Positions 31,886-61,795 of a DNA stretch of 64,000 nucleotides are shown here, in pieces. Numbering within the stretch: the stretch's first letter is position 1; each line of letters opens with the position of its first letter. Source of the stretch: Thermococcus sp. 2319x1. GTDB taxonomy: Archaea > Methanobacteriota_B > Thermococci > Thermococcales > Thermococcaceae. The stretch lies in contig NZ_CP012200.1 in the NCBI RefSeq assembly GCF_001484685.1, positions 614,321 to 678,320 of the forward strand, in the 5' to 3' direction. A program made the translations under genes and the position numbers. Under the pieces are notes generated by a model. That model did no database searches. It had not been told where the DNA came from and worked only from the letters and a program-made list of their open reading frames with translations.

Positions 31886-31973
31886 TGGTGCGGGGGCGGG
31901 GATTTGAACCCCGGAACCCCTACGGGAGTGGATCTTGAGTCCACCGCCTTTGACCAGGCTCGGCAACCCCCGC
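31886..31973 (-). tRNA. tRNA-Leu (anticodon CAA), CCA encoded
   Basis: The minus strand folds as a type II tRNA: acceptor stem GCGGGGG/CCCCCGC, D arm, anticodon stem GTGGA/TCCAC with loop CTCAAGA (anticodon CAA), a long variable arm CTCCCGTAGGGG and a T arm with GGTTCAAATCC. The 3' CCA is part of the gene. No intron is seen. Confidence 0.95.
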
Positions 31974-38689: not shown

Positions 38690-39355
38690 ATGTTAAGGGT
38701 ATTAATATTTGACGTCGATGAGACGCTTGTTTATTATGAACACTACAACGATGGGGAATGGTTTGAAAAATGGGGGAAGAAAGAGATAGAAAAACTTGGG
38801 ATAAGCGTTGACCACGAAACGTACAAAAAAATGGTTAAAGGAGAACTCCCAAGGAGCTGGGTCGAAAAGCTTGGAGTTAATCACGTGGAATTCTGGAAAG
38901 CCATAGACAGGGCAAAGCTCAAGTACAGAAAATGGGCCGCAGAAAAGGGATTAATAAAAGCCTTCCCCGATGTGGATGCTTTGGAGAATTTCAAGCAAAT
39001 GGGCTTAAAACTGGCAGCCGTTAGCAACGCTTCCCAAGATTGCACGGAATTCGTGCTGGAGCTTTATAACTTGAGGGAATATTTTGATGTCATTCTTGGT
39101 AAAGACTACAGGTATTTGGATGGCGCCAAGCCGAATCCCTATCTAATCAAAAAAGCCCTCGATGCCCTCGGAGTTCTTCCAGGTGAAGCTTTGGTCGTGG
39201 GGGACTCTGAATCAGATATCTTGGCAGCCCATAGGGCTGGCGTTAGGGCCGTTCAAGTGATGAGGTTTGGGAAAATGGAGGGGGCAGACTATTACGTGAA
39301 AGATTTGAACGAACTTGTACAGTTAGTGGGCTCATTAATGGATAAGGATTTATAA
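38690..39355 (+). CDS. HAD-superfamily hydrolase
   Basis: This 221-residue phosphatase has motif I FDVDETLVYYEH at residues 7-18 (nucleophile and acid Asp), a helical cap, motif II AAVSNASQD, the Lys motif GAKPNPYLIKKAL and motif IV VVGDSESDILAAHRAGV. It likely dephosphorylates a small metabolite; the substrate is not evident. ATG 38690 follows GGGGGATAGGG. Its 3' end overlaps the TATA box (TTTATAAA at 39349-39356) of the H/ACA RNA downstream. Confidence 0.88.
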   Translation: MLRVLIFDVDETLVYYEHYNDGEWFEKWGKKEIEKLGISVDHETYKKMVKGELPRSWVEKLGVNHVEFWKAIDRAKLKYRKWAAEKGLIKAFPDVDALENFKQMGLKLAAVSNASQDCTEFVLELYNLREYFDVILGKDYRYLDGAKPNPYLIKKALDALGVLPGEALVVGDSESDILAAHRAGVRAVQVMRFGKMEGADYYVKDLNELVQLVGSLMDKDL

Positions 39356-39376
39356 AGGAACGACCTAACTTATAAT

Positions 39377-39595
39377 GCCCCCGCGCGAGGACCCACCCAA
39401 TTAATGAAGGTGGGGGCGATGCGGGGGCAACAGCTCGGCCATAGCGAGGTCCCCACGGGAGGGCCTTCCGCGTTACGGAGCGCGATGACCGTGGGAAACC
39501 CTGGCCGAGTACACTTTTCTGGCCCGCCTGGGTTAAGCCGCTTGAGATTGCCCTATGGCTTCAATGAGAGCGGTCGTTACGGGCGGGCCACATTT
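39377..39595 (+). ncRNA. three-hairpin H/ACA guide RNA
   Basis: Three GC-rich hairpins follow each other, each closed by a perfect 8-9 bp stem and each followed within about a base by ACA. Hairpin 1: GCCCCCGC (39377) / GCGGGGGC (39421-39428), then ACA 39430-39432. Hairpin 2: CTCGGCCA (39434-39441) / TGGCCGAG (39502-39509), then ACA 39511-39513. Hairpin 3: TGGCCCGCC (39520-39528) / GGCGGGCCA (39582-39590), overlapping ACA 39590-39592. Each has an internal loop and an upper stem with TGA/GA sheared-pair signals for L7Ae. TTTATAAA lies 25 bp before hairpin 1. It should direct up to three pseudouridylations. Confidence 0.82.
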
Positions 39596-39596
39596 A

Positions 39597-40670
39597 TTAG
39601 AAAGTCTTTAATGGTTTAGAAATGGAGATTAGCTCTTCCACTGCCAGTGCCAGCTCTTCTGGAGTTCTGGGGTAATATGTGCCAATTTCATAATTTCTTT
39701 TAAGACTTGTTACGAGCAAATTTGCGGAGGACTCTATACTAGGCCCCTGATAATTTGTGGTAATTTTAGAATGCAAATTTTGATAATACCGAGGCTCAAT
39801 ATCAAAAGAGGGGGTTTTTGATATCCTCCTTATTACTTCCTTATTCTTTTGAGTGTTCCTGACAACAAGGATTATTTTGGACAACTCCTTATTGATGCTT
39901 CCAATAACAGTTATTAACCTCTCAACAGTACCATTTATCCATGGAGAGACTATTACCGGCTCCTCAGCATCATAAAGGACATCGGCTATTCCAGCATAAA
40001 TTGTATAATCACCAGGCATTGTTCGAATTATATCAGAAGATTCAACATAATCCCTAATTAGCCTCTCTCCATCTTTTGTCAGTCTTATTTTATTGTCTCC
40101 CTTATCTATCAAACCCAAGTCTACAGAAAGCGGTATGAAAAGAGAACTTACGACAAATTTATTGTAAGGCTTTGCAACGTTCCCTCTCTGGAGGATCCCC
40201 AGCTGATAAAGTATTGATGTCCAGTGTTTCATTTCTCCTCCCAATTCTGAAGATATAACTTTTGGGCTTGCTGAGCCTTTATGGTCAATGTATCTCAGAA
40301 AGACTATCAGAGGATACCATTTTTTGAAAATCGTTCTTAGAACATTCTCCCTGTTTTCTGTATCTTCCTCCATTTGGGTTAACAAATTCTGACCATATGA
40401 GCTTATTCTATATTCTCTTCCAGAACTTTTGACCAAAATTCCCAGATGCCATAATAGCCTAGCGAAGTAATGCCCCTCTTTTCCAGTCTTAGCAAAGGGA
40501 TTTTGACTGTTCTTTTTTAAGAAAGAGTCCATCTCGTTAGTGCTCACGATCTTTTTTGACTCAATGAAATTAAGAAGTTTTAAAAATGTATCTACATCAA
40601 ACCACGCGATTCCATAGCTTGAGAAATAAATCTTGGCAGCATAATAAGGTCTACTTATGATAGGCACCAC
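39597..40670 (-). CDS. winged-helix protein with PLD-like C-terminal domain
   Basis: This 357-residue protein is AT-rich compared with its RNA neighbours. Residues 1-200 are helical, with several winged-helix-like segments (ISSELGGEMKHWTSILYQLG; IDKGDNKIRLTKDGERLIRD). Residues 215-350 resemble a phospholipase-D/HKD domain: EEPVIVSPWINGTVERLI, ILVVRNTQKNKEVI, then YYQNLHSKITTNY (HxK) and ESSANLLVTSLKRNYEIGTYY, the usual GSAN-LERNYEIG ending. The Asp of HxKx4D is not conserved, so catalysis is uncertain. GTG 40670 is the first plausible start (GGTGGTG, weak site). It lies between the tRNA pair and the H/ACA RNA and its stop is next to the H/ACA tail. Candidate DNA- or RNA-targeting defence or regulatory protein; unproven. 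Confidence 0.65.
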   Translation of the reverse strand: MVPIISRPYYAAKIYFSSYGIAWFDVDTFLKLLNFIESKKIVSTNEMDSFLKKNSQNPFAKTGKEGHYFARLLWHLGILVKSSGREYRISSYGQNLLTQMEEDTENRENVLRTIFKKWYPLIVFLRYIDHKGSASPKVISSELGGEMKHWTSILYQLGILQRGNVAKPYNKFVVSSLFIPLSVDLGLIDKGDNKIRLTKDGERLIRDYVESSDIIRTMPGDYTIYAGIADVLYDAEEPVIVSPWINGTVERLITVIGSINKELSKIILVVRNTQKNKEVIRRISKTPSFDIEPRYYQNLHSKITTNYQGPSIESSANLLVTSLKRNYEIGTYYPRTPEELALAVEELISISKPLKTF

Positions 40671-40712: not shown

Positions 40713-40790
40713 TGGTGGGCCCGCGGGGATTCGAACCCCGGACCTCCACCTTGTCAGGGTGGCGTCATAACCAGTCTAGACCACGGGCCC
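40713..40790 (-). tRNA. tRNA-Val (anticodon GAC), CCA encoded
   Basis: Acceptor GGGCCCG/CGGGCCC, D arm with GTGGTCTAGACTGGTTATGAC, anticodon stem CCACC/GGTGG with loop CTGACAA (GAC), T arm GGGGTTCGAATCCCC. The discriminator is A and CCA is encoded. It sits 13 bp from tRNA-Ala, same strand. Confidence 0.96.
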
Positions 40791-40803: not shown

Positions 40804-40881
<78 letters not shown>

Positions 40882-60775: not shown

Positions 60776-60857
60776 TTTGTCCACCTAATTTCACTTCCAA
60801 GGGAAGTTTAAAAAGATAGTGCATATCCTTAAAAACAAAAGCCCTCAAGAAAAGTAT

Positions 60858-60914
60858 GCGATGATGAGTGATGGGCGAACCGAAAGATGAGGATGGAAAG
60901 GTGATCGCTGAGCG
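60858..60914 (+). ncRNA. C/D box sRNA candidate
   Basis: In the gap between the S2P and lplA genes: C box ATGATGA 60861-60867, guide GTGATGGGCGAA, D' box CCGA 60880-60883 (one mismatch to CTGA), 3-nt spacer, C' box ATGAGGA 60887-60893 and D box CTGA 60908-60911 behind guide TGGAAAGGTGATCG. CCTTAAAAAC near 60829 can be its TATA. Targets were not identified by eye. Confidence 0.65.
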
Positions 60915-61737: not shown

Positions 61738-61795
61738 CCGGTCAGGGGCCGATTAGCTCATCACCCTTCAGCAACCTACCCTTCACATCATCCCA
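61738..61795 (-). ncRNA. C/D box sRNA on the minus strand
   Basis: Read on the minus strand: C box ATGATGT (61791-61785), guide GAAGGGTAGGTTG, D' box CTGA (61771-61768), 3-nt spacer AGG, C' box GTGATGA (61764-61758), guide GCTAATCGGCCC, D box CTGA (61745-61742). Box spacing equals that of the sRNA at 38617. It lies directly behind the signal peptidase gene and shares its last codons; it may be processed from that mRNA. Confidence 0.75.

What the first reader, a model, noticed from the sequence alone, without database searches (positions are those of the whole stretch)
39377..39595. Three-hairpin H/ACA RNA with three ACA boxes
Three perfect closing stems, each directly followed by ACA, and a TATA box at the right distance. 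Pocket loops are visible but targets need computation. Such multi-hairpin guides are few in archaea.
Basis: seen in the sequence. Interest (0 to 1): 0.55.

Follow-up and report, generated by a model that had tools for sequence, protein, structure and literature searches.

The report
Known three-hairpin RNA-modification guide (HgcG)

Summary
Window 39376-39592 (+) is the HgcG / Pab40 / Pf7 H/ACA guide RNA, Rfam RF00064 (206.7 bits, E 1e-58, cut-off 77). It has three hairpins, each with a K-turn or K-loop, a guide pocket and an ACA box; all fit the published 10/5/9 fold. HgcG was found in 88 of 94 searched genomes of the family, 74 of 74 good ones. On 88 aligned copies the structure is paired in 96.4% of cells, with 24 of 54 pairs changed on both sides (0/500 shuffles). 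Boxes 1 and 2 are ACA in 88/88; box 3 is ACA in 50, AUA in 38. A scan of 661 rRNA uridines puts the published sites first for hairpin 1 (Pab U2588) and hairpin 3 (Pab U2016, E. coli 1915). For hairpin 2 it prefers the E. coli U2586 equivalent; published U1932 is third. A 2008 paper proposed that site too, but reported the pseudouridine absent in P. abyssi. Three hairpins and their targets are in print. Already known; low interest; hairpin 2 is the one open point.

The parts
39349..39356 (+). TATA box TTTATAAA of the RNA gene; it overlaps the end of the upstream HAD-like gene (38690-39355)
39376..39592 (+). HgcG (Pab40/Pf7) three-hairpin H/ACA guide RNA; the Rfam match is 39323-39597 and its first 53 nt correspond to upstream sequence that is not transcribed in P. 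abyssi
   Evidence: RF00064 206.7 bits; [quoted passage not shown] abyssi from RNA-seq (PMC4652768, passage)
39376..39432 (+). Hairpin 1 (Pab40.1 type): lower stem 39376-39384/39421-39429, 5' guide 39385-39390 (GCGAGG), GA stem 39391-39400/39406-39415 closed by a K-loop, 3' guide 39416-39420 (GCGAU), box ACA 39430-39432. Target: own 23S U2587 = P. abyssi U2588
39433..39513 (+). Hairpin 2 (Pab40.2 type): lower stem 39433-39441/39502-39510, left strand 39442-39450, GA stem 39451-39460/39487-39496 with K-turn, 3' guide 39497-39501 (AACCC), box ACA 39511-39513. Published target P. abyssi U1932 (own U1931); best computed fit own U2677 (E. coli U2586)
39461..39486 (+). Distal arm of hairpin 2, beyond the K-turn, with a nearly invariant core UUCCGC...CGGAG (85 and 87 of 88); no function known
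39521..39592 (+). Hairpin 3 (Pab40.3 type): lower stem 39521-39529/39581-39589, 5' guide 39530-39535 (GGGUUA), GA stem 39536-39545/39566-39575 with K-turn, 3' guide 39576-39580 (GUUAC), box ACA 39590-39592. Target: own 23S U2015 = P. abyssi U2016 = E. coli 1915

Best explanation
The locus is the orthologue of HgcG/Pab40/Pf7 in a member of the Thermococcaceae. The RNA is transcribed from its own TATA promoter (inferred), folds into three H/ACA hairpins, and each hairpin is bound by L7Ae (at the K-turn or K-loop), Cbf5, Nop10 and Gar1 (inferred from the family). Hairpin 1 pairs around 23S U2587 (P. abyssi U2588) and hairpin 3 around U2015 (P. abyssi U2016, E. coli 1915, helix 69); Cbf5 turns those uridines into pseudouridine. 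Hairpin 2 carries the published U1932 function and may also recognise the E. coli U2586 equivalent. Shown here: family membership, structure by covariation, pocket conservation, target fit. Taken from papers: protein partners and in vitro activity in P. abyssi. Not shown: transcription or modification in this organism.
For: Rfam 206.7 bits. Present in 88/94 family genomes and 74/74 good ones. On 87 distinct sequences 96.4% of cells are paired and 24 of 54 pairs have both sides changed, including pairs in each lower and upper stem of the three hairpins. Boxes and pockets conserved. All three hairpins fit the 10/5/9 rule: 10-layer GA stem, 5-nt 3' guide, 9-pair lower stem, 14 nt to the ACA (rule read in PMC4652768). 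A target scan over 661 U of 16S and 23S ranks the published sites first for hairpin 1 (-19.1, next -11.4) and hairpin 3 (-17.3, next -14.6). Sister-family relatives keep a hairpin 1 pocket that fits the same site first on the window organism's 23S, and the hairpin 3 pocket of one such genome fits its own, different 23S best at the U1915 equivalent.
Against: No RNA or modification data for this organism. Hairpin 2 does not rank its published target first: third with two pocket definitions and ninth with a third. Against shuffled pockets the best score is matched by 6/300 (H1), 23/300 (H2, at most two guide nt skipped), 33/300 (H2, up to nine skipped) and 0/300 (H3), and the gap to the runner-up by 4, 7, 5 and 44 of 300. 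With a 6-nt 3' guide hairpin 1 no longer finds U2587. One of five covariation measures is less extreme (further pair types, 9/500 shuffles), and the basal U-A pair of hairpin 1 is unpaired in 52 of 86 rows. In 9 of 10 copies of this genus the hairpin 1 K-loop has AA where P. abyssi has GA, and the window copy has a C-A mismatch next to it.
Confidence: 0.97

Rival explanations
1. The middle domain is not a third guide hairpin but the branched two-hairpin element drawn in the Rfam RF00064 consensus, so only two hairpins (1 and 3) guide.
For: The Rfam structure line draws two small hairpins inside the middle closing stem, and both form fully in the 7 Pyrococcus-type sequences tested.
Against: Those two hairpins form fully in only 7 of 88 sequences, whereas the K-turn stem forms fully in 84 of 88, the same 7 included, and covaries, with both-side changes in 4 of its 7 pairs. 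Three hairpins are published.
Confidence: 0.03
2. The middle hairpin works on the E. coli U2586 equivalent (own U2677, P. abyssi U2678), as its halophile relative is thought to, rather than or besides U1932.
For: Top-ranked of the rRNA U for the invariant pocket with two pocket definitions (-17.1; next -10.9 or -12.6), with GGUC pairing GACC and AACCC pairing GGGUU. The related halophile hairpin is assigned to L2621, the same position (PMC2584109 and PMC4652768).
Against: The pseudouridine was reported not found in P. abyssi (PMC2584109 citing Muller 2008) while U1932 is listed as a target of Pa40.2. If one more A is counted into the 3' guide, U2677 falls to third (-10.7; best is U2646, -12.5). 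23 of 300 shuffled pockets score as well. The free RNA pairs GGU with ACC across this pocket, which could alone explain the invariance.
Confidence: 0.2
3. The invariant AGCGAGGU of hairpin 2 is the missing guide for the orphan pseudouridine P. abyssi 2585 / T. kodakarensis 2589, since it is complementary to 23S ACCUCGCU just downstream.
For: Ten-base complementarity including one G-U pair, 39441-39450 with own 23S 2588-2597. The site needs L7Ae, Cbf5, Nop10, Gar1 and an unidentified RNA (PMC6138745, passages).
Against: The other guide strand does not fit: rank 21 of 45 U that form a first duplex. Matches at least this strong occur 10 times between the RNA and 23S, and 16.4 times on average for shuffled RNA. 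None of six P. abyssi guide RNPs made this site in vitro.
Confidence: 0.03

Closest known systems
HgcG / Pab40 (Rfam RF00064); Pf7 in P. furiosus, Tko1 in T. kodakarensis
   Same: Same RNA: match over the whole model, three hairpins, the same pockets; published sites U2588 and U2016 ranked first
   Different: Sequence drift, with short deletions against the Rfam consensus in hairpin 1; its K-loop is less regular; the middle-domain drawing of Rfam does not hold in this genus
HgcE (Pab105, RF00060) and HgcF (Pab35, RF00058)
   Same: Also multi-hairpin Thermococcales H/ACA RNAs (papers); HgcE genes give weak HgcG hits (21-43 bits)
   Different: Other sequences and, in the papers, other targets; the eight weak loci fetched pass the HgcE cut-off of 50 bits and not the HgcG one of 77. 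HgcF was not compared further
Haloferax volcanii Hvo1/Hvo2 (HP1/HP2) and A. fulgidus Af4
   Same: Reported relatives of hairpins 2 and 3 with equivalent 23S positions (papers)
   Different: [quoted passage not shown] not compared by sequence here

Membership tests
HgcG (RF00064) | Covariance-model score above the curated cut-off | tested here: met
   206.7 against 77 bits, model 1-276 complete
HgcG (RF00064) | Three hairpins with the Pab40.1/.2/.3 pockets | tested here: met
   Alignment of 88 copies, including the one inferred to be P. abyssi's
archaeal box H/ACA guide RNA | ANA box directly 3' of each closing stem | tested here: met
   ACA three times in the window; 88/88, 88/88, and 50 ACA + 38 AUA of 88
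archaeal box H/ACA guide RNA | K-turn or K-loop at the top of the upper stem (tandem GA) | tested here: met
   GA...GA in hairpins 2 and 3 of the window; hairpin 1 has a less regular AA...GA K-loop. Sequence only; no binding tested
archaeal box H/ACA guide RNA | 10-layer GA stem and 14-15 nt between that stem and the box (PMC4652768) | tested here: met
   10/5/9 in all three hairpins, counting mismatched layers
archaeal box H/ACA guide RNA | Pocket complementary to a known rRNA pseudouridine site | tested here: met
   Hairpins 1 and 3 rank the published site first; hairpin 2 ranks it third or ninth by pocket definition
archaeal box H/ACA guide RNA | Bound by L7Ae-Cbf5-Nop10-Gar1 and active | not testable with these tools
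   Stated in the literature for P. abyssi Pab40 at U2588 in vitro (PMC6138745, passage)
archaeal box H/ACA guide RNA | Expressed as a small RNA in this organism | not testable with these tools
   Only relatives: P. abyssi RNA-seq, T. onnurineus transcriptome naming HgcF/HgcG

The most novel reading that the evidence does not exclude
Hairpin 2 is a two-target guide whose invariant pocket still serves, or is kept for, the equivalent of E. coli U2586 beside the peptidyl-transferase centre in Thermococcales, a modification reported absent in P. abyssi but present in haloarchaea; if it is made under some conditions, one hairpin would modify two distant 23S sites.
Probability: 0.15. Interest if true: 0.4.

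Novelty: already known. Interest (0 to 1): 0.12.

Why it matters
It confirms that an unaided reader can find a real structured RNA gene by eye. For the field it adds little: a broader alignment (88 copies) that supports three hairpins over the Rfam middle-domain drawing, relatives below the Rfam cut-off in sister families, and a sharp, testable question about the middle hairpin's target.

Tried and rejected
Second HgcG hits in other genomes (15 places of 21-43 bits, one more) might have been a paralogue: the 8 loci fetched (L012, L096-L102) all carry HgcE (RF00060) above its own cut-off, so they are cross-matches; the other 8 places were not fetched.

Orphan pseudouridine 2585: looked attractive because hairpin 2 contains AGCGAGGU, but the pocket geometry does not fit and matches of that strength are no commoner than in shuffled RNA.

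Genome-wide pattern scan for hairpin 2 outside the family: my first gap was set wrong (33-42 instead of 30 nt), so it could not match even this gene.

A 19-base complementarity (with five G-U pairs) of 39516-39534 to own 23S 2383-2401: reached by 1 of 200 dinucleotide shuffles, but it uses the variable linker and part of hairpin 3's stem, and the P. abyssi pair shows no such match (its best, elsewhere, is reached by 73 of 200 shuffles). I set it aside as chance or private to this species. The best 16S match is ordinary (132 of 200).

Pocket scoring uses a small hand-entered nearest-neighbour table (recalled Turner-type values), contiguous helices with at most one mismatch, and no RNAsnoop; the numbers are for ranking only. 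A first version gave no candidates because of a coding fault and was replaced. In one search's printout the flag 'published' also marks own U2584, the orphan site, which I added; it is not a published target of this RNA. In one search's printout the label 'both score and gap at least as good' counts the gap alone.

The numbering offset of 26 was found by fitting the hairpin 3 target to position 2016; with it all 11 listed positions are U; one of them (2697) was recalled, not read. The E. coli equivalents rest on my own counting on recalled E. coli numbering, supported for 1915 and 2586 by the halophile numbers.

Full report
What is there. The stretch 39376-39592 on the + strand holds three consecutive hairpins, each closed by a nine-pair stem and followed directly by ACA. 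The minimum-energy fold of the RNA shows these three hairpins (-115.6 kcal/mol, z -5.6, 0 of 200 dinucleotide shuffles as stable). TTTATAAA lies at 39349-39356, the right place for an archaeal TATA box of a transcript starting at 39376. It overlaps the last codons of an upstream HAD-type hydrolase gene; the next gene downstream runs towards the RNA and its frame ends at 39597.

What it is. Rfam RF00064 (HgcG, Pab40) matches 39323-39597 at 206.7 bits, E 1e-58, against a cut-off of 77. The genome is a single contig of 1.96 Mb and gives one match to this DNA and one to the family. The family search finds HgcG in 10 of 13 genomes of the genus, 88 of 94 of the family (74 of 74 good genomes) and above cut-off in 88 of 115 of the phylum. 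Three genomes outside the family give hits below the cut-off (62.7, 62.7 and 35.3 bits). Fifteen extra weak places in family genomes and one were seen; the eight fetched are HgcE genes.

Structure and conservation. I aligned the window copy with the other 87 over-cut-off hits. Eight helices of the three-hairpin model pair in 96.4% of 4631 cells on 87 distinct rows; 24 of 54 pairs have both-side changes. No shuffle of 500 reaches four of the five measures; the fifth (further pair types) is reached by 9. The basal pair of hairpin 1 is unpaired in 52 of 86 rows. The Rfam drawing of the middle domain forms fully in only 7 of 88 sequences, which are Pyrococcus-type, while the K-turn stem of a third hairpin forms fully in 84 of 88. 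That Rfam's structures for most of these RNAs were inaccurate and that Pf7/HgcG has three hairpins was written in 2008 (PMC2241582, passage). ACA boxes: 88/88, 88/88, and 50 ACA with 38 AUA of 88. All three hairpins have the published productive 10/5/9 geometry if mismatched layers are counted (rule: PMC4652768, section read; check).

Targets. I located the rRNAs of this genome and the 23S of the genome inferred to be P. abyssi, and fixed the numbering: published positions equal the model index minus 26; all 11 positions checked are U. A scan of 661 uridines of 16S and 23S with each pocket gives hairpin 1 own U2587 = P. abyssi U2588 first (-19.1, next -11.4) and hairpin 3 own U2015 = P. abyssi U2016 = E. 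coli 1915 first (-17.3, next -14.6). The pocket borders were set after I knew the published sites; the scoring does not use them. Both are published targets of Pa40.1 and Pa40.3 (PMC4652768, passages; U2588 also PMC6138745, passage). With an alternative 6-nt 3' guide for hairpin 1 the site drops out of the list. Hairpin 2 ranks own U2677, the equivalent of E. coli U2586, first (-17.1) and its published target U1932 (own U1931) third (-10.5 or -12.2) with two pocket definitions; with one more A in the 3' guide the best is U2646 (-12.5), U2677 is third and U1931 ninth. Shuffled pockets reach the best score in 6/300 (H1), 23/300 or 33/300 (H2) and 0/300 (H3), and the gap to the runner-up in 4, 7 or 5, and 44 of 300. 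So hairpin 2's preference is only suggestive.

Hairpin 2 as the open point. Its left strand AGCGAGGUC and right strand AACCC are invariant in 88/88; in my scan the U1932 duplex uses AACCC but not the GGUC next to the upper stem. In haloarchaea the related hairpin is assigned to the E. coli 2586 position, and the authors noted that Pab40 could take an alternative structure for it although the modification was not found in P. abyssi (PMC2584109, section read). My scan reproduces that proposal. The consensus fold also pairs GGU with ACC across this pocket, which would give the same invariance for a purely structural reason. The distal arm of hairpin 2 beyond the K-turn is nearly invariant too (85 and 87 of 88), without a known reason.

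Relatives outside the family. In the three weak loci hairpin 1 keeps GCGAGGA and a right strand that fits U2587 first by a wide margin on the window organism's 23S (-21.1, -21.1 and -26.7). The hairpin 3 pocket of L093 fits the U1915 equivalent first in its own genome's partial 23S, which differs there from the Thermococcus sequence, and the pocket of L095 also fits that 23S best at this site. Against this: on the window organism's rRNA the L093 hairpin 3 pocket prefers another site and the L095 pocket ranks U2015 second. The 23S of G097 and G114 was not found, no ACCUCG was found in the G095 23S piece, and the L094 hairpin 3 was not scanned. Hairpin 2 is different in L093/L094 and I could not recognise it in L095. 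Pocket borders in these loci were set by eye.

Mechanism and novelty. The best explanation is an ordinary orthologue of HgcG that guides Cbf5 to several 23S uridines. No defining H/ACA feature tested here failed; the one misfit is that hairpin 2 does not rank its published target first. The RNA, its three hairpins, their targets, its presence in Thermococcus and its expression in relatives (P. abyssi; T. onnurineus) are in print. Papers: PMC4652768 sections 10, 14 and 19 and passages; PMC2584109 section 24 and passages; PMC6138745, PMC7991803, PMC2241582, PMC5316973, PMC3124441 and PMC8339473 passages only; Muller et al. 2008 not held, cited through the others.

Noticed in passing
window 39461-39486: The distal arm of hairpin 2, beyond the K-turn, is nearly invariant in 88 genomes, while the loops of hairpins 1 and 3 vary more; no function known.
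   Followed up: partly
L093 1501-1745 (-), L094 1501-1746 (+), L095 1501-1741 (-): HgcG relatives below the Rfam cut-off in sister families of the same class: hairpin 1 and (where scanned) hairpin 3 pockets are kept, hairpin 2 is different or not recognisable.
   Followed up: partly
window 39391-39415: In 9 of 10 copies of this genus the K-loop of hairpin 1 has AA where P. abyssi has GA; the window copy also has a C-A mismatch below it.
   Followed up: no
window 39516-39534: A 19-base complementarity, with G-U pairs, to own 23S 2383-2401, reached by 1 of 200 shuffles but not seen in P. abyssi.
   Followed up: partly
window 61740-61795 (-) and 60857-60913 (+): Two C/D-box guide RNAs, sR36 and sR1.
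   Followed up: no
window 40716-40790, 40807-40881 and 31889-31973 (-): Three tRNA genes, two of them adjacent and about 1.1 kb downstream of the HgcG gene.
   Followed up: no
window 39597-40670 (-): A 357-codon frame converging on the RNA gene, its end 5 nt from the last ACA box; only a sub-threshold winged-helix match.
   Followed up: no
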